From a virus: a stretch of DNA of 64,000 nt. The stretch covers positions 1-64,000 of the IMG/VR virus record IMGVR_UViG_3300019124_000001, one strand, 5' to 3'. Shown here in pieces: positions 5,072-26,058 of the stretch (positions are counted from its first letter, which is position 1; each line of letters begins with the position of its first letter). A program made the position numbers and the translations under genes. The notes under the pieces are model-generated. The model was given only the letters and a program-made list of their open reading frames with translations. It was not told the origin of the DNA and searched no databases.

Positions 5072-5145
5072 TGGCAGGGGCTACAGGACTCGAACCCGTA
5101 CCAACAGTTTTGGAGACTGTCATGCTACCATTACACCAAGCCCCT
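5072..5145 (-). tRNA. tRNA-Trp (CCA)
   Basis: Complete cloverleaf with a 7-bp acceptor stem AGGGGCT/AGCCCCT, anticodon CCA, discriminator G and encoded CCA. Last tRNA of the leftward island. Confidence 0.95.
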
Positions 5146-5148
5146 AGA

Positions 5149-5227
5149 TGGAGGTATGGAGGGGATTTGAACCCCCGAATGCTGGTTTTGCAGACCAGAG
5201 CGTTAAACCGAACTTCGCCACCACACC
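5149..5227 (-). tRNA. tRNA-Cys (GCA), copy 1
   Basis: Acceptor GGTGTGG/CCATACC, anticodon GCA, discriminator U as expected for Cys, encoded CCA. It is 79 nt because of an enlarged D-arm region. A second Cys tRNA lies at 5696-5771. Confidence 0.9.
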
Positions 5228-5256
5228 TATAGCAAATACATGCAAACAAAATATTT

Positions 5257-5332
5257 TGGTGCGCCCACAGGGATTCGAACCCCGACGAACTGATTAAAAG
5301 TCAGCTATGCTAAACCGTTACATCATGAGCGC
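5257..5332 (-). tRNA. tRNA-Lys (TTT)
   Basis: 76-nt cloverleaf, anticodon loop CTTTTAA, discriminator A, encoded CCA. Confidence 0.95.
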
Positions 5333-5336
5333 AAAG

Positions 5337-5414
5337 TGGTACTGGTGGTTGGATTTGAACCAAACGACCTCACGATTATAAGTCATGCGCTCTAACCTTC
5401 TGAGCTACACCAGC
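5337..5414 (-). tRNA. tRNA-Ile (TAT)
   Basis: 78 nt, anticodon loop CTTATAA gives TAT, which reads AUA directly. Most bacteria read AUA with a lysidine-modified CAT tRNA, so the phage supplies a tRNA that avoids this modification. Encoded CCA, discriminator A. Confidence 0.9.
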
Positions 5415-5424
5415 ACAATACGTG

Positions 5425-5511
5425 TGGTGCGAGTGGAGAGACTCGAACTCTCAATCCATTAAAGGCGACAGATTTTAAGTCTGTTGTGTATGCCAATTCC
5501 ACCACACTCGC
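5425..5511 (-). tRNA. tRNA-Leu (TAA)
   Basis: 87-nt class II tRNA with a long variable arm; acceptor GCGAGTG/CACTCGC, anticodon TAA, encoded CCA. Useful comparison for the abnormal tRNA-Leu (TAG) at 7430. Confidence 0.95.
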
Positions 5512-5517
5512 ATAATA

Positions 5518-5593
5518 TGGAGTGCCGTAGAGGATTCGAACCCCTCTGTATCTGCTTAGAAGGCAGATGCCCTATCCACTAGACCAACGGCAC
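5518..5593 (-). tRNA. tRNA-Arg (TCT)
   Basis: Anticodon loop CTTCTAA, stem TCTGC/GCAGA, acceptor GTGCCGT/ACGGCAC, encoded CCA. The discriminator is U, unusual for Arg. Confidence 0.92.
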
Positions 5594-5695
5594 ATAAAAG
5601 AAGCGACAATAGTTAATATCGTTTCAGGATTAGTTTATCGTCTCCCCTGCGGAGAATGTCGATTGTCGCACACGACATTGCCATTTTAGCACTTT

Positions 5696-5771
5696 TGGAG
5701 CGGGGTACTGGATTCGAACCAATGATCTCTCACGTTGCAGGTGAGCGCGTTAGCCACTTCGCCAACCCCGC
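5696..5771 (-). tRNA. tRNA-Cys (GCA), copy 2
   Basis: Anticodon loop CTGCAAC, acceptor GCGGGGT/ACCCCGC, discriminator U, encoded CCA. Sequence differs from copy 1, so it is not a recent duplication. The 100-nt spacer to tRNA-Arg carries a GCGACAAT/ATTGTCGC inverted repeat. Confidence 0.9.
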
Positions 5772-5855
5772 ATAAAACACATCATCGACACAGAAAAAGA
5801 AGAACATATTTCAGCTTCAGGAGGATGGAATAAATGGTTGTGCCGACGATGCTTT

Positions 5856-5930
5856 TGGCGATGGTAAGGGGAATCGAACCCCTGTCTTTCGGGAGACAGC
5901 CGAATATAATAACCATTATACGATACCACC
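5856..5930 (-). tRNA. tRNA-Asp (GTC)
   Basis: Anticodon stem TTCGG/CCGAA with loop CTGTCTC, discriminator G, encoded CCA. Confidence 0.93.
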
Positions 5931-5935
5931 ATTAA

Positions 5936-6011
5936 TGGTGCCGAAGACAGGATTCGAACCTGCAACCTTTCGCTTACAAGGCGATTGCACTAGCCATTGT
6001 GCTACTTCGGC
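5936..6011 (-). tRNA. tRNA-Thr (TGT)
   Basis: 76-nt cloverleaf with anticodon TGT, acceptor GCCGAAG/CTTCGGC, discriminator A, encoded CCA. Confidence 0.94.
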
Positions 6012-6433
6012 AATAAAACAAGTTGCTAACCAAACAGCCACGTGGCAATCAACAAGGTCAATTCGCTACAACCTGCAAGCCAATCACAGCTTCGCGAAAG
6101 CTGTTTACCGTGGATTTTGTCAAGTTTTCAGACTTGAATCATGATTCTTAATTCAAAAGAATGTAAGAGTCGTGAGCTTCTAACCTTATTAACTTTGAAC
6201 TTTTATCTTTACATCCATATTTGTCTACATTCAACATACTATGAATGTGCTTTTAAATAATTTCCGTAGTATCACGATAAAAGTCATATAACAAGGTTGC
6301 CCATTTAACCCAATGGGCTAGGAAGCGAAGTTCGCTGATTTTCGTCTGATTAGCAACAACACTGTTTATTGGTACAGTGAAACCACTTTACCACTCGCTC
6401 TTGAATTCGTGGCGAAACACCATACGAAAACTA
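6012..6433. other. Spacer inside the tRNA island
   Basis: No complete gene. It contains hairpins (CAGCTTCGCGAAAGCTG near 6087; GCCCATTTAACCCAATGGGC near 6299; CACTGT/ACAGTG near 6360). A minus-strand coding-like frame at about 6430-6245 is interrupted by TAA; see findings. Confidence 0.6.
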
Positions 6434-7105
6434 TTACCCATCAATCTCGATAGTAGTTTGCGTATTTGCAACAACAAGAGCGTAATCAACTTCTGCCTTG
6501 AAGTCTTCGATTTCAGTGCGCAATTTATCAATCATGTCGCGAATACCGAGAGGATCGAGCAAAATCGGTTGGCGTTGTGCAGTATATGCATCAACAGACG
6601 CTTGCTGTTCGGCTGAACGGTGCTTAGTGGCTTCTGTTCCAAAAGAGACACGAACAAAATCCTCAACGTTACGATCTAGCTCTTTTTGCAGAGTTTGCAC
6701 TTTCGAAAGAGCTAATGCATAATCAGACTCCAATTTTGCAAGGAGTGCTTCGTCGTAAGCGATAGAAGAATTCTTGCGCTCCAACGCTTCTGCGATTGTC
6801 ATTTCCTTACCGCCGATTGTGATCTTGCGAAGTTCATATCCGTCACCAGCTTTCACGCCAGCATTCGAGATTACAACAGCAGACTTAATCCGCTTGCGAC
6901 GTTCAATCAAATCAAGTACAGATTGAAGTTTCGACCCTGCGCGTTTAGTGAAATCTTCAACAGAAGTTCCAAAGCGCGGTTCAATCTTTTGAGCAGTACC
7001 AGTGTAGTATGCTACATATGTACCGTCATTGATTGCACGATGAATACGAGCATCAAGAGTTTTCAATTCCACAAGAGCTTGCGTGATAGTCATGGTTTGA
7101 GCCAT
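6434..7105 (-). CDS. Coiled-coil protein, possibly DIP1984/DUF6847-like
   Basis: 223 residues. It opens MTITQALVELKTLDARIHRA, continues with heptad-rich helices (residues 95-160 and 190-215) and lacks Cys. The opening pattern recalls small DIP1984-type proteins, but this is from memory and uncertain. It lies between two tRNA groups. Some phages place structural or virion-associated coiled coils in such positions, but no function can be read from sequence. Confidence 0.75.
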   Translation of the reverse strand: MAQTMTITQALVELKTLDARIHRAINDGTYVAYYTGTAQKIEPRFGTSVEDFTKRAGSKLQSVLDLIERRKRIKSAVVISNAGVKAGDGYELRKITIGGKEMTIAEALERKNSSIAYDEALLAKLESDYALALSKVQTLQKELDRNVEDFVRVSFGTEATKHRSAEQQASVDAYTAQRQPILLDPLGIRDMIDKLRTEIEDFKAEVDYALVVANTQTTIEIDG

Positions 7106-7161
7106 TCTGTTGTAGTCTCCTTTTGTCTCTTCAATTTTTATGATTCAATTTGTACGAATTT

Positions 7162-7238
7162 TGGTCAGGGAGACAGGATTCGAACCTGCGACCGCTCGCT
7201 TCCAAAGCGACTACGCTACCAGACTGCGCCACTCCCTG
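7162..7238 (-). tRNA. tRNA-Pro (TGG)
   Basis: Anticodon loop TTTGGAA, acceptor CAGGGAG/CTCCCTG, discriminator A, encoded CCA. Confidence 0.94.
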
Positions 7239-7272
7239 TTATGAGTCACCATTCTCTTGGTGACAACACATT

Positions 7273-7348
7273 TGGCATCCCCTGATGGAATCGAACCACC
7301 ACTTCGAGATTCGTAGTCTCGCGTCTTCGTCCATTCGACTAAGAGGAT
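7273..7348 (-). tRNA. tRNA-Arg (ACG)
   Basis: Anticodon stem CGAGA/TCTCG, loop CTACGAA, so anticodon ACG (probably deaminated to ICG if the host enzyme acts). Discriminator G, encoded CCA. Confidence 0.93.
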
Positions 7349-7350
7349 AT

Positions 7351-7425
7351 TGGTTACGGAGACGGGATTCGAACCCGTGTCTACAGGGTATGAGCCTGTC
7401 AAGGAAACCACTCCTCCACTCCGTA
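7351..7425 (-). tRNA. tRNA-Met (CAT)
   Basis: Anticodon stem ACAGG/CCTGT lacks the three G-C pairs of an initiator, so elongator Met is preferred. A CAT tRNA could also be lysidine-Ile, but this genome already has TAT and GAT Ile tRNAs. Encoded CCA. Confidence 0.88.
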
Positions 7426-7429
7426 ATAT

Positions 7430-7506
7430 TGGTAGGGGCTAGGAGACTCGAACTCCTAAAACTCTGCTTCTAAGGCAGATACGTATGCCAATTCCGTCAA
7501 GCCCCC
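7430..7506 (-). tRNA. tRNA-Leu (TAG) with short variable loop
   Basis: Anticodon TAG (stem TCTGC/GCAGA). The D arm (GGAATTGGCATACG) is Leu-like, but the variable region is only 5 nt (GTTTT) instead of the long arm of class II tRNAs; total 77 nt. Acceptor GGGGGCT/AGCCCCT, encoded CCA. See findings. Confidence 0.85.
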
Positions 7507-7843
7507 ATGTAATACGAACAGTTGGCAAGCTATTGATCAGATAGCCAGTTGCATCCAACTGCAAGGGAGCTTGTTTACTAGTTACTCCGAACCGCATGAT
7601 GTCACGACATCATGAAACGCTATTGATTCTTTTGGACAATCAACAGGAACCCCTCTGGTACTTCATTTTCATATAGGAACACCAGAATCCCATCTTTGTT
7701 TCTAGCTCAAAGACTAAGGCTGTTGTCCTTCTCGTAGTCAACACACGCTACGTTTTTCAACTAGTATTGGAACGTAGAAACCCGCGACCCTTTCATCCTG
7801 AAGCCAAACGCAATGCTTGACTTCTAAACTACTCGTGATCTCG
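7507..7843. other. Spacer inside the tRNA island
   Basis: No intact gene. It holds an 8-bp hairpin CATGATGT/ACATCATG near 7596-7614 and minus-strand coding-like frames broken by stops (see findings). Possibly gene remnants or structured RNA. Confidence 0.55.
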
Positions 7844-7919
7844 TGGTGACGCATGTGGGAATCGAACCCGACATTAACGACTTGAAAGGCCGTTTTCCTA
7901 ACCATTAGAAGAATGCGCC
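7844..7919 (-). tRNA. tRNA-Glu (TTC)
   Basis: Anticodon stem ACGGC/GTCGT, loop CTTTCAA, acceptor GGCGCAT/ATGCGTC, discriminator A, encoded CCA. Confidence 0.92.
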
Positions 7920-7925
7920 AAAATT

Positions 7926-8004
7926 TGGGGTGATGGACGAGAATCGAACTCGCGACACCTGCGGTCACAACGCAGTATGCGTAACCAACACGCATTCCCA
8001 TCAC
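7926..8004 (-). tRNA. tRNA-His (GTG)
   Basis: Anticodon stem CTGCG/CGCAG with loop TTGTGAC; acceptor GTGATGG/CCATCAC and discriminator C. The base before G1 is U, so the extra G(-1) normally encoded in bacterial tRNA-His is absent. Encoded CCA. Confidence 0.88.
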
Positions 8005-8075
8005 AATCCAACCTACCATTTGCACCTAATCGAAGATGGTAGGCTCGATTGCAAAGGCTTGCGTTTTATCTAACC

Positions 8076-8128
8076 CTTACACTTAGTAAGTGACGATGTA
8101 CCCCTGTTTGTCAGGTGTTTTTCGGCAC
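8076..8128 (-). repeat. 53-bp element, copy A
   Basis: Identical 21-bp and 22-bp ends flank a 10-bp variable core. Two more copies lie at 12896 and 12986. This copy is upstream (minus strand) of tRNA-His and the distal tRNA group. The 21-bp end contains the perfect dyad CACTTA-G-TAAGTG. Candidate phage promoter, operator or structured RNA. Confidence 0.85.
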
Positions 8129-8170
8129 GAAGTTTCAAAATGTTTCAAGTGCTCTGTCAACTGAAAGATA

Positions 8171-8258
8171 TGGCGGAACAGGCGAGATTCGAACTCGCGG
8201 TGGTTTTACCCACGCCTTCTTAGCAGGAAGGTGGTTTAAGCCGCTCACCCACTGTTCC
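8171..8258 (-). tRNA. tRNA-Ser (GCT)
   Basis: 88-nt class II tRNA; anticodon stem CCTTC/GAAGG, loop CTGCTAA, long variable arm, discriminator G, encoded CCA. Confidence 0.94.
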
Positions 8259-8338
8259 AAAAAGATAGGCAGGACGGCATACCCTGCATCTCTGTTGACT
8301 ATTTCTAGCGCGGCAGGAACCTTTCTGCCCTCTATCCA

Positions 8339-8611
8339 TTACGAAACGAACGCTTCGACAGTGCCGTCTTCATAGGTCACAATTTCAAGAATGCCCTTTA
8401 CCATCAATGCCGCTTTTGTGTGTTCATTTTCTGGCGTTTCTTTCGTAGAAAAGCCAACGCCCTCACTAACAGACATGTGGTTCACGTAGTATGTTCGTCC
8501 CTTCGCCTTTACAATCCAAGGTGGGATACTGCTATCTTCATTGTGCTTCTTGTTGAAATGAAAAACAATTCTTGTTTTTTCAATCTATAGCTTATTTAAA
8601 ACCACTTTCAC
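8339..8611 (-). CDS. Small phage protein with in-frame UAG at codon 9
   Basis: A 90-codon frame starts with GTG 7 nt after AAGGAGG and ends in TAA, but codon 9 (8587-8585) is TAG. The rest reads as a convincing protein: KTRIVFHFNKKH, IPPW, GRTYYVNH, FSTKETPENEHTK. From memory this resembles a small conserved phage family with the same motifs. No other in-frame stop occurs. The gene lies 125 nt downstream of a CTA (amber-reading) tRNA on the same strand, so readthrough is a natural explanation. The alternatives are a pseudogene or a rare downstream start such as the ATT right after the TAG. Confidence 0.6.
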
Positions 8612-8652
8612 TGTAGTTCCTCCTTATTTTCATTACCACTTGTGCCAAACAT

Positions 8653-8731
8653 TTTATATCAAAACTTTGCCCATTCTTCTATCTAACTAATGCGCACTTG
8701 CCGTATTGAATGGGCAAAGTTTTGATATAAA
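8653..8731 (-). other. 24-bp perfect hairpin
   Basis: Arms 8653-8676 and 8708-8731 are perfectly complementary (start TTTATATCAAAACTTTGCC) around a 31-nt loop. It lies between the suppressor tRNA and the UAG-containing gene. No poly-U follows on the minus strand, so an RNase III processing site or regulatory RNA hairpin is more likely than a terminator. Confidence 0.8.
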
Positions 8732-8736
8732 TAAAA

Positions 8737-8812
8737 TGGTGCGTCCAGCGGGACTCGAACCCACACCTTCCGCTTTTAGAGAGCGGCGTTCTTCCAATTG
8801 AATTATGGACGC
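8737..8812 (-). tRNA. Suppressor tRNA (anticodon CTA, reads UAG)
   Basis: Well-formed 76-nt cloverleaf: acceptor GCGTCCA/TGGACGC, anticodon stem CCGCT/AGCGG, loop CTCTAAA giving CTA, T stem GTGGG/CCCGC with TTCGAGT loop, discriminator A and encoded CCA. It has a 5-nt variable loop. The amino acid it carries cannot be decided by eye. It would decode UAG, and the adjacent downstream gene contains an in-frame UAG. TAG also ends many genes in this window, so it cannot be a complete reassignment. Confidence 0.88.
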
Positions 8813-8814
8813 AT

Positions 8815-8889
8815 TGGCAACGGGTAAGGGATTCGAACCCTTGCTATCAGAATCAAAGTCTGAGGTGCTTACCATTACACTAACCCGCA
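8815..8889 (-). tRNA. tRNA-Gln (TTG)
   Basis: Anticodon stem TCAGA/TCTGA with loop CTTTGAT. The 1-72 pair is weak (U-U), typical of Gln tRNAs; discriminator G, encoded CCA. Confidence 0.9.
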
Positions 8890-9001
8890 ATATTGTTCAG
8901 GGGTAGGGAAATTGATCGTCACGAAATTCTTCGTACTCTGCCACAATTTCCGAACAAAGAATATTCTTTGTTCGCTTTGCCTTGCCATCCCCGACAGCTT
9001 T

Positions 9002-9077
9002 TGGCTACGTAGGTGGGACTCGAACCCACGACCCCCGCATTAACAGTGCGGTGCTACACCACTTCAGCTTCTACGCA
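9002..9077 (-). tRNA. tRNA-Asn (GTT), copy 1
   Basis: Anticodon stem CCGCA/TGCGG, loop CTGTTAA, acceptor TGCGTAG/CTACGTA, discriminator G, encoded CCA. The upstream spacer has a 24-nt palindrome (CGAACAAAG ... CTTTGTTCG, 8952-8975). Confidence 0.93.
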
Positions 9078-9082
9078 ATAAT

Positions 9083-9156
9083 TGGTGCTTCCTGATAGAT
9101 TCGAACTATCATACCTCGATTATCATTCGAGAGTCCTACCATTGGACGAAGGAAGC
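9083..9156 (-). tRNA. tRNA-Ile (GAT)
   Basis: Anticodon stem CTCGA/TCGAG with loop ATGATAA; acceptor GCTTCCT/AGGAAGC, discriminator A, encoded CCA. Confidence 0.92.
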
Positions 9157-9208
9157 AAAAAGTGGGCATGTTAAATGCCCCAAGAGAAAACACCAAAGGA
9201 GAGAATTA

Positions 9209-9284
9209 TGGTGGAGAAGACGGGATTCGAACCCGCTACCTTTCGCTTGCAAGGCGAATGCTCTACCTATTGAGCTACATCCCC
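9209..9284 (-). tRNA. tRNA-Ala (TGC)
   Basis: Anticodon stem TTCGC/GCGAA, loop CTTGCAA. The acceptor has the Ala identity pair G3-U70 and one U-U mismatch at 6-67; discriminator A, encoded CCA. Confidence 0.92.
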
Positions 9285-9291
9285 ATTGTAT

Positions 9292-9366
9292 TGGTTGGGT
9301 ATAAGGGAATCGAACCCCTTCCTCCAGCTTGTAAGGCTGGCGTACTCCCGTTATACAGAATACCCA
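9292..9366 (-). tRNA. tRNA-Val (TAC)
   Basis: Anticodon stem CCAGC/GCTGG, loop CTTACAA, acceptor TGGGTAT/ATACCCA, discriminator A, encoded CCA. Confidence 0.93.
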
Positions 9367-9399
9367 ATAGAAGCAGGGAGGGAACCTCCCCGCAAGTGA

Positions 9400-9696
9400 T
9401 TAGTTTTGAATCTTGTCTGTCAAAGCGTCAATATTTTTAAAGATTTGTGCGATTTGTTGAAGAGATGCTTTAACCTGACTTTGTGTGTTGTCGATTTGCT
9501 GTTGCATATTCGTAAATTGCATAGCCGCAGATGGATCTTGTGATTGGATAATAGACGCGAACTGTTGCAACGTTTGTTCCACGAAGTCAAATTGTTTCTG
9601 AACAATTTCTGCGTTTTGCAAAAGAGCAACACCAGCTTTTACTTCTGCGTCGATTTGGTCAGCTACACGTGCAGATTTCATACCAAAATTAAACAT
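9400..9696 (-). CDS. Small coiled-coil protein
   Basis: 98 residues, almost entirely helical with Gln-rich heptads (TLQQFASIIQSQD, MQQQIDNTQSQV). No Cys, no signal peptide. AGGGGA lies 9 nt before the ATG. It sits alone between tRNA groups with short intergenic gaps, so it is probably cotranscribed with them. Function unknown; an oligomerising scaffold or virion protein is possible. Confidence 0.75.
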   Translation of the reverse strand: MFNFGMKSARVADQIDAEVKAGVALLQNAEIVQKQFDFVEQTLQQFASIIQSQDPSAAMQFTNMQQQIDNTQSQVKASLQQIAQIFKNIDALTDKIQN

Positions 9697-9737
9697 TATT
9701 GTTATTCCCCTTTTATTCCTATATGGTTTTGATTATA

Positions 9738-9811
9738 TGGCAGGGTTGCAGGATTCGAACCCACATCTCTTCCTTGAACTAAGAAGCATTTTGCCGTTAA
9801 ACTAAAACCCT
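9738..9811 (-). tRNA. Atypical tRNA with 8-nt anticodon loop
   Basis: tRNA-like molecule with normal D arm, TTCGAAT T loop and encoded CCA. With standard arm spacing the anticodon stem is CTTCT/GGAAG around an 8-nt loop TAGTTCAA, and the acceptor has only 6 bp (AGGGTT/AACCCT) before discriminator G. If U33 is forced before the anticodon, the triplet would be TCA (opal). Isotype undetermined. Confidence 0.7.
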
Positions 9812-9812
9812 G

Positions 9813-9887
9813 TGGTGGCTCCCGTTGGTAACGCTCCAACCTCCTTCGCTTTTCAGGCGAATGCTAATCTGTCTCAGCTAGAGAGCC
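9813..9887 (-). tRNA. tRNA-Phe (GAA) with aberrant T loop
   Basis: Anticodon stem TTCGC/GCGAA, loop CTGAAAA, acceptor GGCTCTC/GGGAGCC, encoded CCA. The T loop is AGCGTTA on a perfect GTTGG/CCAAC stem instead of the near-universal TTCRANY. Confidence 0.85.
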
Positions 9888-9890
9888 AAT

Positions 9891-9974
9891 TGGTAGGGAC
9901 AGAGGGACTTGAACCCTCACGCTTAAAGCACTAGTTTTTGAGACTAGCGTGTCTGCCCATTCCACCATGCCCCC
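9891..9974 (-). tRNA. tRNA-Leu (CAA)
   Basis: 84-nt class II tRNA, anticodon stem CTAGT/ACTAG with loop CTCAAAA, long variable arm, encoded CCA. Confidence 0.93.
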
Positions 9975-10074
9975 ATGAATTGCTACGTTATTACTTTTAT
10001 TTCGAAGTTCTAAAGGTAGCCAAACCACTCTTCGGTTCGTTATTTTAGGGCTTAAACGAATCCAAAATTACCGC

Positions 10075-10149
10075 TGGTGTGAACAGAGGGAATCGAACCC
10101 TCGCCGTATGCTTGGCAAGCACAAGTTCTAGCCGTTAAACTATGTCCAC
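10075..10149 (-). tRNA. tRNA-Gly (GCC)
   Basis: Anticodon stem TGTGC/GCATA with loop TTGCCAA, discriminator A, encoded CCA. Confidence 0.92.
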
Positions 10150-10152
10150 AAA

Positions 10153-10230
10153 TGGCTGTCGGGGTTGGACTCGAACCAACATTGCCCTCCGCACAACAAG
10201 CAGAGCGCATTACCATTATGCTACCCAACA
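10153..10230 (-). tRNA. tRNA-Asn (GTT), copy 2
   Basis: Anticodon stem TCTGC/GCGGA with loop TTGTTGT, giving GTT but with G at position 37 rather than A. Acceptor TGTTGGG/CCCGACA, discriminator G, encoded CCA. Less canonical than copy 1. Confidence 0.8.
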
Positions 10231-10388
10231 ATATTTGGATGTCGCTTCAACACAGAGCAATTGTGTGTCAGGGCGCGACATTAGCCCTAGCATATTGCAG
10301 TTGTCTAGAATGCCAGCTATGCCGTGCTGTCGCTTCAACTCAGGCAGTCCATCAAGTGGGCTGTTCGTCCGTATTGTTGAGCATTTTG

Positions 10389-10464
10389 TGGTGCGGAATA
10401 AGGGAATCGAACCCTTGCTTCATGCTTGGAAGGCACACGTCATAGACCATTAGACTAATTCCGC
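10389..10464 (-). tRNA. tRNA-Gly (TCC)
   Basis: Anticodon stem TGTGC/GCATG with loop CTTCCAA, acceptor GCGGAAT/ATTCCGC, encoded CCA. Confidence 0.93.
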
Positions 10465-10467
10465 AAG

Positions 10468-10557
10468 TGGCGGGTAGTGAGGGATTCGAACCCCCATGCC
10501 TGTTACAGCACATTGGTTTTCAAGACCACGCCGTTATAACCATTTCGGTAACTACCC
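10468..10557 (-). tRNA. tRNA-Ser (TGA)
   Basis: 90-nt class II tRNA, loop CTTGAAA giving TGA, acceptor GGGTAGT/ACTACCC, discriminator G, encoded CCA. Confidence 0.92.
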
Positions 10558-10561
10558 ATAT

Positions 10562-10648
10562 TGGTGAAGAGGGAAGGAATCGAACCTCCAAGGCACAAAG
10601 GCACGTGGGTTACAGCCACGCCCGCTTCCACTTACGGTCTACCTCTCC
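10562..10648 (-). tRNA. tRNA-Tyr (GTA)
   Basis: 87-nt class II tRNA, anticodon stem CGTGG/CCACG, loop CTGTAAC, acceptor GGAGAGG/CCTCTTC, discriminator A, encoded CCA. First tRNA of the leftward island. Confidence 0.94.
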
Positions 10649-11101
10649 AAGTTAAAATCGTAGTTGTCAAACAGTTAGCTACACTATTTGTTTAAACGCC
10701 ACAACTACGAAAGACGTTTGGGAACTGGTTTTTGTGTGCGCTGTTGTACACCAGCTACGCAATTGTCGAGGTTTAGCCCTCATTGTGCTACACACTTACC
10801 GCCGTAAAACCATTAAAAGGCGCAGGGTATATTGGGAAATTCCCTCACCGTTTGTCCCATGACCACGCATCTGAAATTGACCGTTCGATCTAAATCAAAT
10901 CGCTGTAGAGTCCTCCATTTCCACCACTACAGCAACAGCGAAGTTCTGGTTCTTCTCATATCGCTATATTTCCTCGTCACAAAACTCAAAAGCCTCCAAC
11001 CAGTAAGGTACTTTTTGTTGTTTCTGCAACTACTTCAACGCAAAAGCCACTCCCACCAATACGGTTTATGTGGTGTTCCCAAAAACGGAAGGACAATTCG
11101 A
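10649..11101. other. Gene-poor spacer
   Basis: No standard gene. On the minus strand a short frame (about 11010-10870) preceded by GGGAGTGG reads coding-like but contains two TAG codons (see findings). CGTAGTTGT/ACAACTACG at 10658-10710 forms a hairpin upstream of the tRNA island. Confidence 0.5.
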
Positions 11102-12403
11102 TCAATCTTCAAGTAACTTTGCCATTTCAGCAGTTTCACTACGCTCTGTCTTATCAAGTGTGACAAGACCAAAGCGCATATTCCCCTTTAGGCGAATTAG
11201 TGACTTCAAACCACTGTTCATATCGAAAGTATAGTTATCGGTCTGCTTAATGTCTCCGTTCAACCAAAGCTCAGAACCTTGACCAACGCGACCAAGCAAC
11301 AGTTGAACATGGTCTTTCGTGTTGTTTTGAACTTCTGTTACATAAATAATCGCATTCTTAATGTCGCGACCACGCAACGTGCCAAGATGTTGCAATTCGA
11401 TCTTTCTTTTGTCGTAAAGCATTTTAAGCCCTTCGACGCCACCAACATGGTCTGCGAGGGGCATTGCAAATTCAATCAACTTGTCAAACAAATCGCCTTT
11501 ACGAAAACCAAGCTCTTTTGTGTCCTTAACTTCAATATTGTTACGAACCCAAACGATCTTATCGAATTTATTTCGTTCAAGTAGGTTAATTGCATGGGAC
11601 AACATTACATAATCTTTTCCAACACCAAAAGTACCAAAGCAACCTTTTACAGTGATGGTGGGGTCTTGCAACAGATCAAACAAAGCGTCTTGCTTATGAT
11701 TGATTGGCTCGACTTCTCCCATAAATTTACTTTTGATTTTGCTGAACGAAAGTTTGGCAAGCATTTCTCCGTCCCAACGATGCTTCGCACCACGAACCAA
11801 CTCATATGCAATCGGTTCGCCAGTTTCTTGATCAAACTCGGTTGGTTTTGAAGTGTCCCAAACAAACAAGTATTCGTTCCGAACCAGACCTAGTGGATTG
11901 TAACCGCCAATCTTGTATTCATCTTTCACGGCGTAAAGTTCTTTATAGAACTCTCGATCTTCTTTCTTCGACATGTCAATGAAGACATCTCGAACTCCAC
12001 CATAAACATCTTCTGGAACAGCTAACTCCCAACCTTTTAGGTGAGGAATATTGTATGCTTTGGCTTTTCGAATTAACAGAAGGTCGTTGGATATTAGACC
12101 ATAACCGTTCACTACGCAAGCCTGTATGATCATATTATCCACGTAACCAGCATCAAATCTGTCGTTCAGGTCAAATTTATAATCTGCCAAGTCATACTCG
12201 AATAAGCCCTCGTTTGCGTCAAGGAAGCGAATTACCTTACGTGCGCGGTAAGCGAGAGAAGCATTACGACTAATCGTATGCTTCTCCAACTCGCGCAATA
12301 CGTGCGATAGAATTACAGGCTTCCCATATTCAGCTTCAAGGGAATGTACTACCTGAATGTGTTCAAGTAGTACATTGGTATCGACTACCCACCGCAGTTC
12401 CAT
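11102..12403 (-). CDS. PIN-PhoH protein (PhoH2-like)
   Basis: 433 residues. An N-terminal PIN nuclease domain carries the acidic residues in VVDTNVL, RELEKH, YVDNMI and SNDLL. From about residue 250 a PhoH ATPase domain follows with Walker A-like GTFGVGKD and a Walker B-like IIYVTEVQN, where the usual D-E pair reads T-E. PhoH2 proteins are RNA helicase/nuclease fusions, and PhoH is common in large phages with unclear function. It starts 16 nt after HU without a clear RBS, so coupling to HU is likely. Confidence 0.88.
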   Translation of the reverse strand: MELRWVVDTNVLLEHIQVVHSLEAEYGKPVILSHVLRELEKHTISRNASLAYRARKVIRFLDANEGLFEYDLADYKFDLNDRFDAGYVDNMIIQACVVNGYGLISNDLLLIRKAKAYNIPHLKGWELAVPEDVYGGVRDVFIDMSKKEDREFYKELYAVKDEYKIGGYNPLGLVRNEYLFVWDTSKPTEFDQETGEPIAYELVRGAKHRWDGEMLAKLSFSKIKSKFMGEVEPINHKQDALFDLLQDPTITVKGCFGTFGVGKDYVMLSHAINLLERNKFDKIVWVRNNIEVKDTKELGFRKGDLFDKLIEFAMPLADHVGGVEGLKMLYDKRKIELQHLGTLRGRDIKNAIIYVTEVQNNTKDHVQLLLGRVGQGSELWLNGDIKQTDNYTFDMNSGLKSLIRLKGNMRFGLVTLDKTERSETAEMAKLLED

Positions 12404-12419
12404 CGTATGGAACCGCTAA

Positions 12420-12797
12420 TTATGCTTTTGCTTTACGTGCCGCTTTTTCAGCTTCACGTTTAGCAAGAATTGCAGAAGCAACTTCGTGAGACGGCATTTC
12501 TACGTTGTTAGACGGAGAGAAACCGTAGTTGACAGACGGAGCGATTTCAAGTGCTTCGCCAGTCTTCGGGTTGCGTCCAGTACGACCAGCACGAGTACGC
12601 AGTTCATAAGAACCAAAGTTAACAATTTTTACATCGTTGCCAAGCGCCATGTGAGCCTTAACCGCAGAAGTGTAAGCGTCAACCGCAAGTCCAGTTAGTT
12701 TTTGTGTTACACGAATATCTAGACCTGCTTCTTTTGCCAGTTCTGCAAAAATAGGGGTCATGTCTTTTACGAGTGCGTCTTTGTTGATAGATGCCAT
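12420..12797 (-). CDS. HU-family DNA-binding protein
   Basis: 125 residues. The HU/IHF core includes NFGSYELRTRAGRTGRNPKTGE, with a Lys/Ala-rich C-terminal tail (AKREAEKAARKAKA) that makes it longer than the usual 90. It bends or compacts DNA and may act in phage chromatin, replication or packaging. A GGAG RBS precedes the ATG. The upstream region holds a palindrome (GTTGGGAACTTCCCAAC, 12850-12866) and two copies of the 53-bp element, so dedicated regulation is likely. Confidence 0.93.
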   Translation of the reverse strand: MASINKDALVKDMTPIFAELAKEAGLDIRVTQKLTGLAVDAYTSAVKAHMALGNDVKIVNFGSYELRTRAGRTGRNPKTGEALEIAPSVNYGFSPSNNVEMPSHEVASAILAKREAEKAARKAKA

Positions 12798-12849
12798 TGT
12801 TTTCTTTTTCTCCTTTTGTCCCGTTGGACTATAAATTTAATGTATTTTC

Positions 12850-12866
12850 GTTGGGAAGTTCCCAAC
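12850..12866. promoter_or_regulatory. 17-bp palindrome upstream of HU
   Basis: GTTGGGAA-C-TTCCCAAC is a perfect dyad 54-70 bp before the HU start. It may be an operator or a leader hairpin. Confidence 0.6.
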
Positions 12867-12895
12867 CGATTTCTTTAAGTTCAATAAAACTGAAC

Positions 12896-12948
12896 CTTAC
12901 ACTTAGTAAGTGACGATCACCCGTACTTTGTCAGGTGTTTTTCGGCAC
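12896..12948 (-). repeat. 53-bp element, copy B
   Basis: Same ends as copies A and C, with core TCACCCGTAC. Its start is exactly 90 bp from that of copy C and it lies about 100 bp upstream of HU on the minus strand. Confidence 0.85.
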
Positions 12949-12985
12949 TCAATTTTGTACTCTCGCGGTTCATGTTTTATCGAAC

Positions 12986-13038
12986 CTTACACTTAGTAAG
13001 TGACGACAAAGGGTTCTTTGTCAGGTGTTTTTCGGCAC
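12986..13038 (-). repeat. 53-bp element, copy C
   Basis: Core CAAAGGGTTC. Together with the conserved GAC/GTC ends the core can form a 7-bp stem (GACAAAG/CTTTGTC). Flanked on the right by GAAGTT as in copy A. Confidence 0.85.
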
Positions 13039-13067
13039 GAAGTTAAATGTACACAGAAAACAAAAAA

Positions 13068-13092
13068 GAGAGGGGCTTTTTGGCTCCTCTCC
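13068..13092 (-). terminator. Intrinsic terminator (leftward)
   Basis: On the minus strand GAGAGGAGCC and GCCCCTCTC pair around AAAAA and are followed by TTTTTTG, ending the transcript of the sigma-like gene pair. Confidence 0.8.
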
Positions 13093-13100
13093 AATGGTGT

Positions 13101-13490
13101 CTATTGATTTAGTTCGTCTGCATCTTCGGAAATACCGAGGCGAACTTTTTCTTCTGCTGACATTGCTCCAAAGTGAATCTCCTTTTGGCGACCTTTTTTC
13201 ATCCATCTTGTCTTATCTACAGACAAAATCTCTTTATCTTCTTTACCTTTTTGGCTTTCGTCTTTCGTCCAAACTAAATAGTCACTAATTACTTCCAATG
13301 CTACTGCTGTCTTAATATTGTTCCAATAGCGTCGAAAATAATCGCCCCACTCTGTCAAAATCCCATCCACGACCTTCTTCTTGGCTTCGATGTCCAAAGT
13401 CTTATCTAGCCTAACCTCTTTGCCATCGGGCAGAATGAGTTTCATATACGGTTTATCTTTTGCTTTATCTGAATTTTGAGTGTTGTTCAT
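13101..13490 (-). CDS. Hypothetical protein cotranscribed with sigma-like factor
   Basis: 129 residues from MNNTQNSDKAKDK. Mixed alpha/beta with a central aromatic stretch (WGDYFRRYWNNIK). The ATG overlaps the stop of the sigma-like gene (ATGA) and AGGAG lies 8 nt upstream, so the pair is translationally coupled. It could be a partner or antagonist of that factor, but this is inference from linkage alone. Confidence 0.75.
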   Translation of the reverse strand: MNNTQNSDKAKDKPYMKLILPDGKEVRLDKTLDIEAKKKVVDGILTEWGDYFRRYWNNIKTAVALEVISDYLVWTKDESQKGKEDKEILSVDKTRWMKKGRQKEIHFGAMSAEEKVRLGISEDADELNQ

Positions 13491-14056
13491 TGTTGTTCTC
13501 CTGCCTTCTTTTCTAGTCTTTCTTTTGATTCGCATTCGCGACACTTCTTATAGAAGATATCTTTGTTTTTGCGTTTACGAAAATATTTCTCTGCGAGAGG
13601 CAAATTTCGCTTGCAATTACCGTTGCAGACTTGCCATTTTACCTTTTTATTACGTGCTGTAAATGCCGCCATGCTCCAAATGTCCATGTTCGCTCTGACA
13701 ATTCGTGCATACATTTTTTCCAAGGCTTCACTTACCGATTGCTTAGTAATATCCAAAGAAATTGCAATTTCTTCCATCGTCCACCCTCTGCTAATCATGT
13801 CTATCATTCGCAGTTGGTTTTCGCTAAATTCGCAAAACTTGATACAACGATCAATATCAGAATATAGCGCAATAAGTTCTTGATTTAGGTCATTCTCAAC
13901 GCCAGCGACATATGGACTGCGCTCAATCACAAGGTCGAAACAGGGATCGAGTTTGTCCCTGTTTTCGATTAGTTCCTTTACCATTTCGGGTTCCGTTAAA
14001 ACGATTCGTTCATACGGACGCTCTTTTTTGTGAATATCAATTTGCACTGCTCCCAA
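13487..14056 (-). CDS. Sigma-70 region-4-like regulator with zinc site
   Basis: 189 residues. The central segment SENQLRMIDMISRGWTMEEIAISLDITKQSVSEALEKM, described here by its ends at about residues 78-118, is a classic sigma region 4/LuxR-type helix-turn-helix. A C-terminal CNGNC ... CRECE arrangement could bind zinc. The TTG start has AGGAGGGG 6 nt upstream. It probably programmes phage transcription, and the 53-bp element is a candidate target, but there is no direct evidence for that link. Region 2 of a full sigma factor is not evident. Confidence 0.75.
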   Translation of the reverse strand: MGAVQIDIHKKERPYERIVLTEPEMVKELIENRDKLDPCFDLVIERSPYVAGVENDLNQELIALYSDIDRCIKFCEFSENQLRMIDMISRGWTMEEIAISLDITKQSVSEALEKMYARIVRANMDIWSMAAFTARNKKVKWQVCNGNCKRNLPLAEKYFRKRKNKDIFYKKCRECESKERLEKKAGEQQ

Positions 14057-14095
14057 TGATGTCCCCTCCTGTTTCTTCTATTATATCATACATAG

Positions 14096-16408
14096 TTATT
14101 GTTTGTGCAACACAAAATTTTCTAGTAATTCTGGTAAAAAAGTGTTTCGTTTTGCTGATTTGTTTTGATCTACAGCATAGATCAATGCATTCAACTCCAC
14201 AATCAATACACACGTTTTTACAGCACGCGTCAAAGCTGTGTACACCAATTGACGAGAGAGTAATTTGAATGCCGAATAATCCATTGCAAACAGCACGATT
14301 TCGAACTGCGAACCCTGCACTCGGTGCACAGTTAGCGCATAAGCAAGTTCAATTTGCGACATTTGTTCAGCCGTATACTTAACCGTACCAGTCCCAACAA
14401 ATTCAATAAGTACATAGCTTTCTTTCTTGTCGGGGTCAACGTGTACTTTGGTAATTGTCCCAAGAGTACCATTGAATACCATATCATCGTAATTGTTTCC
14501 GTTTTGAATAACTTTGTCTCCTTCGCGGAAATCATATTTATTACGAGTAATGTAAGGCTTACTCATGTCGTTAAACACTTTTTGAAGCTCCAAATTTAAC
14601 TCTCTGGTGCAGTTTTTTCCTCGTTCTTTCAATGGCGTAATTACTTGGAAGTCCATGATTGAAACCTTGTTCTTCACGATGAAGTTCTGATAGAACGAAA
14701 TACTATATTTCATCACCGTTTTAAACACATCTTCCGCTGTTTCGTATGGACGGAAATGCAAGTCCTTCAATTCGCCAATAACGCGATTTCCGTAGTCGTT
14801 TCGAACCGCAAACTGAACCCCTTCGCGCACTAAATTCGCCGTTGATAGAATGCCAGACATTTGAGCCTGACGGTGAACCTGCGTCAAAGTAACTGTCGGA
14901 AACTTCTGACTATCAATCAGGTCTTTAAACAAGTTGCCAGCGCCAATAGGTTCAAGCTGTTCGGTGTCTCCAAGCATAATGAAGATCGCGTTATCTGGCA
15001 ATGCCTGAATCAAACTGTTACCAATCGGTACGTTGATCATAGAAAATTCATCACCGATAACTACATCTTCCTGCAAAGGATTTTCTGCACAATAGAAAAA
15101 ACCGCCTGTGCGCGGTTCATAACCAAGCATCCTGTGAATTGTTGATGCTTCCAAGCCAGTCGATTCATTGATGCGCTGTGCGGCTTTGCCAGATAATGCA
15201 CACGCTTTATACAATAAAGGTCGATCACTAGCCAGATTCAAGACACGAATAATACCTTTGAGAATCGTCGTTTTACCCGTACCAGCTTTACCATGAATAA
15301 TCAGCACTTTGTAGTTGCAAGCATAGACAATCGCCGTTCTCTGTTCGTCTGTGAATTTAAATCCCTGTTCTTCCTCCACCTTTTCAATCAGCTTATCAAT
15401 ATCGTCAGATTGAATTGGATGTTTTCTGGACAACAGATCGAACAATTTCTCTTTGATCCGAAATTCGCTACGGAACAAATAATACAATCCAATTCGACCT
15501 TTGTCTAAAATGTATTTTTGATTCTGCTGTTCAGTTCTCCCATATTCGCCAAGCCAAGCGTCAATCTTTTCAATCCCAATACCCAACAATTCGTTAGCCC
15601 TGTTCAACAACTTGTCAATATACATCCATGTGTGTCCGTCATTAGTAGATTCTTCGAGAATATACTTAATACAAGCGTCGATACGGAACGACGAATCGGG
15701 AGCTACACCCATTTTAAGTGCATATTGGTCACATTTTTTAAACCCAATACCATCAACTTGCGTCAAAATGTAAGGATTTTCTTTAACCTTTTGCATCAAA
15801 ATTCCTGCACTTCCATAGTGTCCAATCAGTTTGGATACCATGTTATAGTTCAGACCATATTGGCTCAATTCAGCCAACGCTTCTGCCATTTCGATGCTTG
15901 CAAGCACCTTTTCGCGCACTCGTTTATACGTTGTTTCTCCGAATCCACGAATACGATTATATTCCAACGTATCGTCACGGAACATTTGCAAAACATCTTG
16001 CCCGTCATACACTTCGTAGATAGCTTGTACTTGCAGTTCGGTTAGAATTGTTGACAAGTATGCCCTCTGCGTATCAACAGATGTCGGCAATTCTGTGTTC
16101 ATGCGAATTAATTCATACCCAATTCCCCATTTAGGATCACGTACTTCTTTTACAAAAACCTTGTAGTAACTTCGCTCCTGCAATGGTGGCATTACTCCTT
16201 TAAGGGAAATGTTTCCATATGCGTTAAGTTTTACTTTTGTGGTATCCGATGGCAGACAGCCGTAGATACCGAAATTTCTATCGTTATCGTAAAAGAGTTG
16301 GCGAACTACTTGTACTTCAAGTTCGATTTCTTCATCCGAAACTTCGGCTTCTCTTTCACTTCCCGACTCGTATACATAGTTATCGTTTGTCAAAATGTCT
16401 TCGAACAC
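14096..16408 (-). CDS. RecD2-like helicase
   Basis: About 770 residues, superfamily 1 helicase. Helix-hairpin-helix repeats in the N-terminal half (LIGHYGSAG, VDGIGFKKCDQ) precede the motor: Walker A GKAGTGKTT, motif Ia ALSGKAAQRI, GDEFSM, GDTEQLEPIG and VHRQAQ. The C-terminal UvrD-like segment has VHRVQGSQFE and YTALTRA. RecD2 acts in DNA repair and replication; the phage copy probably serves replication or recombination. I start at the GTG at 16408 because AGGAG lies 9 nt upstream and the promoter -10 overlaps the earlier ATG at 16453. Confidence 0.9.
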   Translation of the reverse strand: MFEDILTNDNYVYESGSEREAEVSDEEIELEVQVVRQLFYDNDRNFGIYGCLPSDTTKVKLNAYGNISLKGVMPPLQERSYYKVFVKEVRDPKWGIGYELIRMNTELPTSVDTQRAYLSTILTELQVQAIYEVYDGQDVLQMFRDDTLEYNRIRGFGETTYKRVREKVLASIEMAEALAELSQYGLNYNMVSKLIGHYGSAGILMQKVKENPYILTQVDGIGFKKCDQYALKMGVAPDSSFRIDACIKYILEESTNDGHTWMYIDKLLNRANELLGIGIEKIDAWLGEYGRTEQQNQKYILDKGRIGLYYLFRSEFRIKEKLFDLLSRKHPIQSDDIDKLIEKVEEEQGFKFTDEQRTAIVYACNYKVLIIHGKAGTGKTTILKGIIRVLNLASDRPLLYKACALSGKAAQRINESTGLEASTIHRMLGYEPRTGGFFYCAENPLQEDVVIGDEFSMINVPIGNSLIQALPDNAIFIMLGDTEQLEPIGAGNLFKDLIDSQKFPTVTLTQVHRQAQMSGILSTANLVREGVQFAVRNDYGNRVIGELKDLHFRPYETAEDVFKTVMKYSISFYQNFIVKNKVSIMDFQVITPLKERGKNCTRELNLELQKVFNDMSKPYITRNKYDFREGDKVIQNGNNYDDMVFNGTLGTITKVHVDPDKKESYVLIEFVGTGTVKYTAEQMSQIELAYALTVHRVQGSQFEIVLFAMDYSAFKLLSRQLVYTALTRAVKTCVLIVELNALIYAVDQNKSAKRNTFLPELLENFVLHKQ

Positions 16409-16675: not shown

Positions 16676-17806
16676 CTATTTACGCTTGTATTTATTAAGC
16701 ACATCGCTTGCCGTTCGTCCGCTGGATTTCTTGTTTGAGCGTATCATATCTTCGATACTATTTGCAGATGATTTATACCTAACATCTTCTTCCTCGTTGA
16801 AGATCAATGCTATTTTGTCATTGCTTTCTTGGATAATCTGGTCAATTTTCCCCATTCGTTCGGAATTCCAAGCTAATCCAGACAATATTGTCAGCAGTTG
16901 ACCATCCGATTCATCGTAACCGCCATCAAAAAGGTCGATAGGCATACCAAGTTCGAATTTGCTGAAAATAAGTTGGGGGTCGATGAACTTTAACATAGAG
17001 GGGTCGCCATCAAAAACAATTCCAGCGTTTACCACTTTTTTGTATTCGACAGGTGTGAACACGGTGTTTTTCCAAGAATTTTGCACAGAATTTGCAACAC
17101 CTTCTCTCGAAAGGTCGATTTTTCCATGATTCATTTTCGCAATTCCGAGTTCAGATATGGTACACACGCCTTTTGTATTGAAAATCGTTCGCAAATCTGT
17201 GCGGTCGAAGTTGCCAACCTTTGATTGTTTCGTCGTGTAGGATAAAATCCTGTCAAGTAATTGCAGTGCCTTTGCATTAGTCTGTTGGTACAGTTCATCT
17301 TTACCGATATTTGGAAACATATTACGCATTGCTTGATTGTCAATCGGCAAAATAGCACACTGCAATTGCGCCAGTTCTTCCGATGTCTTGCTAGAGTTCA
17401 TTTGTGGTACAACCAATTCTTGCAAGTCAGGCAAAATTGGCATTGCGACGAACGTTTTTTCGGGCATTTCATTTGAACACATCTCGATCAACATGGGACT
17501 GATACCTGAGCCAGTACCTCCACCTGTCGAAAAAGCTACAAACACGATTTCAATAGACGGCTGATTCAGGTTTTGCTTGATGAAGTCTACAACTTCTTGG
17601 TATTGATTGGCAAAAATATCCTGAGCTTCATTGCGGTTGTGACCAACGCCTTCTGAACCAATTAAACGAAACTTGGATTTGACATTTTTCAAGCCATTCA
17701 ACTCATTTTGAGACGTATTTACCGCTACAGATGGAATCCCAAACACTCTTGTTGCAAGATCAGCGATATTTCCACCAGCGCCACCGTTGCCTACGACTGC
17801 AAACAT
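16676..17806 (-). CDS. tubZ: TubZ-like tubulin/FtsZ GTPase
   Basis: 376 residues. The tubulin signature FSTGGGTGSG (about residues 90-99) and the N-terminal GNGGAGGN nucleotide-binding loop identify the FtsZ/TubZ superfamily. The C-terminus is basic (SGRTASDVLNKYKRK), as in TubZ tails that contact TubR. Known TubZ proteins segregate plasmids and plasmid-like phages by treadmilling filaments. The gene directly follows a TubR-like gene with no gap, supporting a partition role. A phage-spindle (PhuZ-like) role is the alternative. Confidence 0.88.
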   Translation of the reverse strand: MFAVVGNGGAGGNIADLATRVFGIPSVAVNTSQNELNGLKNVKSKFRLIGSEGVGHNRNEAQDIFANQYQEVVDFIKQNLNQPSIEIVFVAFSTGGGTGSGISPMLIEMCSNEMPEKTFVAMPILPDLQELVVPQMNSSKTSEELAQLQCAILPIDNQAMRNMFPNIGKDELYQQTNAKALQLLDRILSYTTKQSKVGNFDRTDLRTIFNTKGVCTISELGIAKMNHGKIDLSREGVANSVQNSWKNTVFTPVEYKKVVNAGIVFDGDPSMLKFIDPQLIFSKFELGMPIDLFDGGYDESDGQLLTILSGLAWNSERMGKIDQIIQESNDKIALIFNEEEDVRYKSSANSIEDMIRSNKKSSGRTASDVLNKYKRK

Positions 17807-18091
17807 TTATTCCAACTCCTTTTCAAGTGCTTGTTGGACTGCTGTAATACCATAACCTGTAATGAACAGGCTTTTCTTGCTGTTGTCTCTGACGACTTCG
17901 ACAAAATTCAAGGCTTCCAGACGATAAATTTGTTCTCTGAATTTCGCTATAGACAATTCGGTCTTTTCGCGAAGATCATCGTGGTTCATTGCTTTGAATT
18001 TTGCGTCAATTCCTTCATCATTCAATATTACAAGGATAGCAAGGGACTCTAGCGACAATAGAGATACTACTTTGCCGAAGTATTCGTTAAT
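17807..18091 (-). CDS. tubR: TubR-like winged-helix DNA-binding protein
   Basis: Small helix-rich protein (SLESLAILVILNDEG ... LSIAKFREQIYRLEALNFVEVV) with a winged-helix layout and the size of TubR. Its stop abuts the tubZ start. The first conventional start is TTG at 18058 with no RBS, whereas GGAGGGAG lies 9 nt before an in-frame ATT at 18091; that start adds an N-terminal helix (NEYFGKVVSL). An ATT start would be a way to keep expression low. TubR binds centromere repeats, which may be the AT-rich 18110-18205 segment. Confidence 0.75.
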   Translation of the reverse strand: MNEYFGKVVSLLSLESLAILVILNDEGIDAKFKAMNHDDLREKTELSIAKFREQIYRLEALNFVEVVRDNSKKSLFITGYGITAVQQALEKELE

Positions 18092-19563: not shown

Positions 19564-19642
19564 TGTTCCTCGGCTTGACAGCATTGTTATCTTGTGTCAT
19601 AATAAGTTTAGATATTAGGTACAAAACCTAGGGGGTGTGACC

Positions 19643-25935: not shown

Positions 25936-26058
25936 GCCGTCCTAGCGGCTCAAAACAGCCCTTTAAGCTAGGAGCGTCTACCCCGAAAGGGGTAGGGTAG
26001 GGTATATCCCTAAAACATCACAGAAAGCCCGCTAGGGGCTTTAGGAGGTCAATTACAT

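What the first reader, a model, noticed from the sequence alone, without database searches (positions are those of the whole stretch)
8076..13038. Three-copy 53-bp element with fixed ends and a 10-bp variable core
Copies at 8076, 12896 and 12986 share 21 bp and 22 bp exactly and differ only in a core of exactly 10 bp. Ends held one helical turn apart suggest protein contact at two faces, as in a promoter for a phage sigma factor or polymerase. The copies precede tRNA-His and HU on the same strand, and a sigma-like gene lies at 13487. Alternatively the element is a small structured RNA: the core can pair in copy C, and the left end holds CACTTAGTAAGTG.
Basis: partly seen in the sequence, partly recalled or inferred. 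Interest (0 to 1): 0.78.

Follow-up and report, generated by a model that had tools for sequence, protein, structure and literature searches.

The report
Phage late-operon repeat, variable 10-bp core
A bacterial virus carries three copies of a 54-base DNA signal whose two ends never change while the ten bases between them do; it sits where the virus seems to switch on its late genes, probably as a control site, but no relative of it is known and its job is unproven.

Summary
Three copies (8075-8128, 12895-12948, 12985-13038) share 22 + 22 bp exactly and differ in a 10-bp core. The 163.8-kb phage record has no fourth copy, and none was found in the phage, plasmid or IMG/VR collections. All copies are intergenic and lie on the strand of the neighbouring genes (minus). 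Two stand in tandem directly behind a terminator-like hairpin, ahead of HU, PhoH, 29 tRNA genes and, through the circular join, terminase and structural genes. This late strand has 1 sigma-70-type promoter in 5.2 kb of non-coding DNA, against 66 in 30.5 kb on the early/middle strand. The 'sigma-like' gene upstream has a region-4-like HTH; no sigma region 2 was found in the record. Best reading: a late-transcription control site of the RinA/Ltr kind, bound by that HTH protein. A full phage-sigma promoter is not supported. On the sense strand only, cores pair with their flanks better than permuted cores (P about 0.001 alone, 0.005-0.02 in context), but in three different registers, so an RNA role is not excluded. 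Function is inferred, not shown.

The parts
8075..8128 (-). Element copy A (54 bp), between tRNA-Ser(gct) and tRNA-His(gtg); core 8097-8106
12895..12948 (-). Element copy B (54 bp), 97 bp upstream of the HU start codon; core 12917-12926
12985..13038 (-). Element copy C (54 bp), tandem with B (90 bp start to start); core 13007-13016
8051..8080 (-). Hairpin that overlaps the end of copy A, loop with GATAAAAC
   Evidence: fold
12877..12897 (-). Hairpin behind copy B; loop region is the reverse complement (GTTTTAT) of that of A and C
   Evidence: folds
12967..12986 (-). Hairpin behind copy C, GGTTC-GATAAAACAT-GAACC
   Evidence: fold
13057..13092 (-). Terminator-like hairpin with U tract, ending about 18 bp before copy C
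   Evidence: fold z = -2.7; not listed by the pattern scan
13487..14056 (-). HTH regulator with a sigma region-4-like domain and a C-terminal CxxC-type tail; proposed binder of the element
   Evidence: PHROG sigma-factor families; region-4 fold matches, weak E; orthologues at the same place in related phages
14080..14109 (-). Sigma-70-type promoter of the HTH gene, TGCACA-18-TATAAT, whose spacer carries the phage's repeated operator-like motif
13101..13544 (-). Gene of unknown function (phrog_8285), last gene before the terminator
12420..12797 (-). HU-type DNA-binding protein (PF00216), first gene behind copies C and B
12828..12857 (-). Weak sigma-70-type candidate promoter between copy B and HU (TTCCCA-18-TATAGT, 9 of 12)
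11102..12403 (-). PIN-PhoH protein, second gene of the same run
5072..10648 (-). 29 tRNA genes, same strand; copy A lies inside the array

Best explanation
The element is a DNA control site for late transcription. Reading on the minus strand, two tandem copies (C, B) stand at the head of the late transcription unit and a third (A) restarts or boosts it inside the tRNA array. Two fixed 22-bp arms are contacted by protein and the 10-bp core is a spacer of fixed length. The most likely binder is the product of the HTH gene just upstream (13487-14056), itself made under an operator-bearing middle-type promoter, so that early/middle expression leads to late expression, as with the RinA/Ltr late regulators of Gram-positive siphophages. 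Shown: copies, fixed ends, fixed spacing, gene order, terminator-like hairpin before C, near absence of sigma-70 promoters on the late strand, HTH gene position. Inferred: that the element is bound at all, that the HTH protein binds it, and that it activates transcription.
For: 44 of 44 fixed positions with a saturated core means selection on both arms and on their spacing. C starts about 18 bp behind a terminator-like hairpin. Late strand: 1 sigma-70-type site in 5,205 non-coding bases against 66 in 30,461 on the plus strand; the late figure equals the wrong-strand background of 6 in 30,461. The record ends overlap by 127 bp and the terminase reads across the join, so the late run from HU to tail genes is continuous on the map (portal and tape measure). 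The HTH gene has orthologues next to HU/PhoH/tRNAs in related phages. Its fold matches sigma region 4, the -35 reader, and the left arm holds CTGACA, 5 of 6 with a -35 box. Ltr regulators are described as small basic proteins coded just upstream of the late promoter they activate, and they generally bind repeats there (passages of PMC13123087).
Against: No binding or transcript data. No consistent sigma-70 -10 box: A and C have GATAAA just behind the unit, B has it inverted. Only 3 copies. Related phages with the same HTH gene have sigma-70 promoters, not this element, ahead of their tRNAs. The HTH protein has no match to RinA, ArpU or Ltr models at E up to 10. The structure model is poor outside residues 62-135 (mean pLDDT 57.5) and no fold match is below E = 0.1. 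The core-flank pairing on one strand is not expected for a free DNA spacer.
Confidence: 0.42

Rival explanations
1. A structured leader or processing RNA on the late strand: the element acts after transcription, for instance as a cis-acting antiterminator for the long tRNA/structural run, or as a stabilising 5' structure.
For: On the sense strand all three cores give a minimum energy of -13.3 to -13.4 against a random mean of -8.3, each in the best 1.7%. Permuted cores: combined P = 0.0012 on minus, 0.24 on plus; in native context 0.005-0.018 on minus, 0.23-0.48 on plus. A hairpin follows each copy although the arms differ. RNAalifold packs the fixed part into three adjacent hairpins with the core in the loop of the middle one.
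Against: The three copies pair in three registers with different partners. The fixed part alone is not special (P = 0.10) and no pair covaries (0 of 12). There is no sigma-70 promoter close upstream of any copy, and no Rfam match at the element.
Confidence: 0.22
2. An operator that keeps HU and the tRNA group off, bound by a repressor, perhaps through the 13-bp palindrome.
For: CACTTAGTAAGTG is a perfect palindrome, 3 of 3 copies, nowhere else in the record.
Against: The phage already has another operator-like motif, about 30 sites, which is a better candidate for a repressor. A palindrome would not explain the other 30 fixed bases or the 10-bp gap.
Confidence: 0.12
3. Autoregulatory site for the phage's own HU/IHF-like protein: the protein bends DNA between two flanking contacts.
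For: Two of three copies stand directly before the HU gene; fixed flanks around a free middle and an A-tract in one arm suit a bending protein (recalled from IHF/TF1, not tested).
Against: 54 bp is longer than the roughly 35 bp that IHF covers (recalled); copy A is not near HU.
Confidence: 0.09
4. Recent copies of one sequence with no own function, or a recombination or packaging site.
For: A tyrosine recombinase gene is present (19637-20680) and TGAC/GTCA flank the core as a short inverted repeat.
Against: 44 identical beside 10 saturated positions cannot be neutral copying; a recombinase would need equal overlaps, and the cores differ.
Confidence: 0.1

Closest known systems
RinA/Ltr late-operon activation of Gram-positive siphophages (PMC13123087, passages read)
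   Same: Small HTH-type regulator gene directly upstream of a repeat-bearing region that leads into the late genes
   Different: Here the repeat is 54 bp with a free 10-bp core, two in tandem and one remote, not 18-bp direct repeats; the HTH protein matches no RinA/ArpU/Ltr model; no clear -10 box
SPBRE / MrpR operator of phage SPbeta (PMC10516654, passages read)
   Same: Repeated intergenic element in a related siphophage group; relatives such as Sundance carry SPbeta Yon-type genes
   Different: SPBRE is a 15-bp motif at ten peaks; the 54-bp element has 3 copies. The motif ACAAACAACAACTATGTATG of this phage is the better counterpart
SPbeta YonO late promoter (PMC5467207, passages read)
   Same: One start for a whole late operon; promoter sequence not known in that paper
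   Different: No multisubunit-type polymerase domain and no D-x-(D/N)-G-D motif in picked ORFs over 250 aa
HK022 putRNA (PMC9378689, passages read)
   Same: About 70-nt cis RNA in two related copies that lets polymerase pass terminators
   Different: put lies behind a promoter and has two fixed stem-loops; here no promoter is seen close upstream and the three copies fold differently

Membership tests
RinA/Ltr late regulator module | Small regulator gene directly upstream of the late promoter region | tested here: met
   HTH gene 13487-14056, one gene and a terminator-like hairpin before copies C and B; 189 aa, longer than the about 130 aa given in PMC13123087
RinA/Ltr late regulator module | Direct repeats upstream of the late start | tested here: met
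   Two tandem direct copies 90 bp apart before HU; repeat type differs from the 18-bp repeats of PMC13123087
RinA/Ltr late regulator module | Regulator belongs to the RinA, ArpU or Ltr sequence families | tested here: not met
   No such model in NCBIfam at E up to 10
RinA/Ltr late regulator module | Sigma-A -10 box behind the repeats | tested here: inconclusive
   Only TTCCCA-18-TATAGT (9 of 12) before HU; nothing comparable behind copy A
RinA/Ltr late regulator module | Regulator binds the repeats and activates late genes | not testable with these tools
   needs binding and transcript data
Promoter of a phage sigma factor | Phage codes a sigma factor with region 2 | tested here: not met
   PF04542: 0 of 1, control 10 of 14
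Promoter of a phage multisubunit RNA polymerase | Phage codes such a polymerase | tested here: not met
   PF00623: 0 of 1, control 14 of 14
Promoter of a T7-like or N4-like phage RNA polymerase | Phage codes a single-subunit polymerase | tested here: inconclusive
   PF00940: no match, but the control rang in 0 of 14
Sigma-70 promoter of the host | TTGACA and TATAAT-like boxes 16-18 apart inside the element | tested here: not met
   No site overlaps any copy in the scan
Known structured RNA family (Rfam 15) | Covariance model match | tested here: not met
   No match overlaps the copies at E up to 1 or at gathering scores
putRNA | Two conserved stem-loops behind a promoter | tested here: not met
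   Copies fold in different registers; no promoter close upstream
SPBRE | 15-bp motif in many promoter regions | tested here: not met
   3 copies of a 54-bp unit; motif letters of SPBRE were not compared

The most novel reading that the evidence does not exclude
The two fixed arms are an RNA scaffold, and the core is not free: in each copy it has been rewritten so as to pair with another part of the fixed left arm, reaching almost the same energy (-13.3 to -13.4 kcal/mol) by three different folds, on the late strand only. This would be a leader in which what is selected is how tightly the arm is masked and not a given structure.
Probability: 0.12. Interest if true: 0.6.

Novelty: new variant of a known kind. 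Interest (0 to 1): 0.36.

Why it matters
If it is the late control site, it gives a ready reporter for how a large, tRNA-rich siphophage lineage without a recognisable sigma factor or RNA polymerase hands over from early to late genes, and a first target sequence for a widely shared region-4-like HTH protein whose site is unknown. If it is an RNA, it would be an unusual case of selection on masking energy instead of structure.

Tried and rejected
Homologues by sequence: exact patterns of both halves joined, of each half and of the middle in viral contigs and one half in genome contigs; blastn of 12860-13050 in phages, plasmids and E. coli genomes. All negative but one 18-bp match (L108) at the end of a fibre-like gene of another phage, which I take as chance. 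The three phage hits have E = 7.

Counterparts in relatives: self-repeats in 14 stretches of loci and profile R1 over 33 related loci (not all of the 80 + 8 loci were given to it). No counterpart.

Guide-like reading (loop pairs with another transcript): longest outside matches are 10-11 bases, which is what random cores give. Leader peptide: the left arm and core are open in one frame on minus up to TAA, but there is no start codon or Shine-Dalgarno site in frame and third positions are as fixed as the others; rejected from the sequence. Shared GGGT in the three cores if C is inverted: P = 0.0027, noticed after the fact, so given no weight. The first pairing test (400 permutations, P = 0.0003) overstated the case; 4,000 permutations gave 0.0012 and native context 0.005-0.018. 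Second genome-contig scan gave 8 loci, none with the element for the two that were included (L100, L107); the other 6 were not searched.

Structure: only residues 62-135 of the HTH protein are modelled with any confidence; Foldseek matches to sigma region 4 have E about 0.2.
Full report
What is there. On the plus strand the three copies read CCTTACACTTAGTAAGTGACGA, then ten variable bases, then TTTGTCAGGTGTTTTTCGGCAC, at 8075-8128 (A), 12895-12948 (B) and 12985-13038 (C). The genes around them are all on the minus strand, so I read the unit as GTGCCGAAAAACACCTGACAAA-N10-TCGTCACTTACTAAGTGTAAGG. Cores on minus: A CAGGGGTACA, B GTACGGGTGA, C GAACCCTTTG. There is no fourth copy in the 163,787-bp record.

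Setting. The record's first and last 127 bases are identical and the large-terminase-like frame runs across the join, so the map is circular. The plus strand from about 22 to 132 kb carries early and replication genes. The minus strand from 13 kb through the join to 133 kb carries HU, PhoH, 29 tRNA genes, terminase, portal and tail genes. C and B lie between a terminator-like hairpin (13092-13057; z = -2.7) and HU. A lies inside the tRNA array. HU starts 97 bp behind B; tRNA-His starts 70 bp behind A.

Promoters. With at least 10 of 12 matches, the plus strand has 66 sigma-70-type sites in 30,461 bases that lie outside picked plus-strand frames of 80 aa or more. The late strand has 1 in 5,205 non-coding bases, at 139950. 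Wrong-strand controls are 6 in 30,461 and 0 in 5,205. By the plus-strand rate one would expect about 11 on the late strand (my arithmetic). So late genes need another signal, and the 54-bp unit is the only repeated non-coding unit that I saw on that strand; I made no exhaustive motif search of the late gaps beyond reading them.

Regulator. The gene at 13487-14056 matches PHROG sigma-factor families (phrog_5767, E = 4e-12, to the C-terminal part of that profile; phrog_3512). It has no Pfam match at E <= 0.001 and only weak HTH and region-4-like matches. A model from five rows is confident only for the HTH stretch, whose top Foldseek matches are sigma region 4 (3hug, target TM 0.63-0.71, E about 0.2). 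No region 2 was found in the record. Orthologues sit at the same place in Bacillus phages BcoS-136, FADO and 2S-4 and in Alicyclobacillus phage KKP_3916. Its promoter (14109-14080) belongs to the operator-bearing middle class. This is the layout of a late regulator such as RinA or Ltr, which is described as a small protein coded directly upstream of the promoter that it activates through repeats (PMC13123087, passages).

RNA or DNA. A free DNA spacer should not pair with its flank. On the minus strand all three cores do so better than most random cores (each in the best 1.7%). Against permutations of the same letters the combined P is 0.0012, and 0.24 on the plus strand. With 5-40 bases of native context it is 0.007-0.018 on minus, and without context 0.005 in that smaller run. 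Control windows behaved as expected: 12% of 60 at P <= 0.1. Without copy C the figure is 0.018 or 0.03-0.11. The registers differ: A uses GUGCC/GGUAC and CCUG/CAGG, B uses CACCUG/CGGGUG inside GUG-CGA/UCG-CAC, C uses GACAAAG/CUUUGUC. With identical arms no covariation test is possible (0 of 12 pairs informative). I regard this as suggestive, not decisive. One further trace: the loop behind the unit reads GATAAAAC in A and C and is inverted in B (GTTTTAT), between arms that pair in each copy. Hairpin-loop inversion of this kind can arise by template switching (recalled), so it shows a hairpin in the replicating DNA and not by itself a function.

Relatives. The nearest phages by PhoH are at 50% identity or less, too far for an orthologous element. 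In BcoS-136 and FADO the tRNA arrays carry sigma-70 promoters. The element therefore cannot be called conserved; it is known from one genome.

Literature. I searched for SPBRE/YonO, skipping-rope RNA, Tsamsa and late genes, put RNA, late promoter with tRNA cluster, and RinA/ArpU, and read passages of four papers. None of the listings or passages describes this element; that is a statement on those searches only.

Verdict. The best reading is a late-operon control site of a familiar kind with an unfamiliar layout. The strict sigma-factor promoter is not supported, the RNA reading is open, and the element's function is untested.

Noticed in passing
plus strand 25066-56693 (35 sites) and 82845: AATTACATA occurs 36 times on the plus strand and 0 times on minus (about 2 expected per strand), nearly always in the leader just before or behind the Shine-Dalgarno site of early genes. 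A shared early-mRNA leader motif of unknown role.
   Followed up: partly
record 24735-126566 plus strand; 16467, 16391, 14107 minus strand (window) and 65617: 32 matches (up to 4 mismatches) to GACAAACAACAACTATGTATG, as the 18-bp spacer of sigma-70 promoters or just before a ribosome-binding site. Looks like a repressor operator/stoperator set, the counterpart of SPBRE.
   Followed up: partly
window 8261-8339 (-): Skipping-rope RNA (RF02924, 71.4 bits) inside the tRNA array, ending in a terminator-like hairpin next to tRNA-Ser.
   Followed up: no
window 25935-26002 (+): Pistol ribozyme (RF02679, 60 bits, gathering 34.5) directly behind the gene 25555-25935.
   Followed up: no
window 47296, 48452, 50468, 50959, 52504 (+): Five promoters whose -35 box lies in a long perfect or near-perfect hairpin followed by the -10 box, so that one stretch could be both terminator of one gene and promoter of the next.
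   Followed up: no
window 8737-8812 and 9739-9812 (-): tRNAs with anticodons CUA and UCA (called Pyl and SeC by ARAGORN), likely amber and opal suppressors. TAG ends 35 and TGA 33 of the 135 picked frames of 120 aa or more, so no sign of recoding.
   Followed up: partly
window 16676-17806 (-) and 19637-20680 (+): Tubulin/FtsZ-like GTPase (TubZ/PhuZ-type, PF00091) beside a small gene 17807-18058, and a Xer-like tyrosine recombinase: hints of a plasmid-like prophage state.
   Followed up: no
L012 (Bacillus phage vB_BcoS-136) 10419-13340: Eight copies of a leader AGRCACNNACAGCAATTA behind sigma-70 promoters between tRNA genes; role unknown.
   Followed up: no
L011 (Bacillus phage FADO) 11598-11823: Seven copies of a 22-23-bp repeat TAGTATTAAATTTTTTAACACTA ahead of the tRNA array, iteron- or centromere-like.
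   Followed up: no
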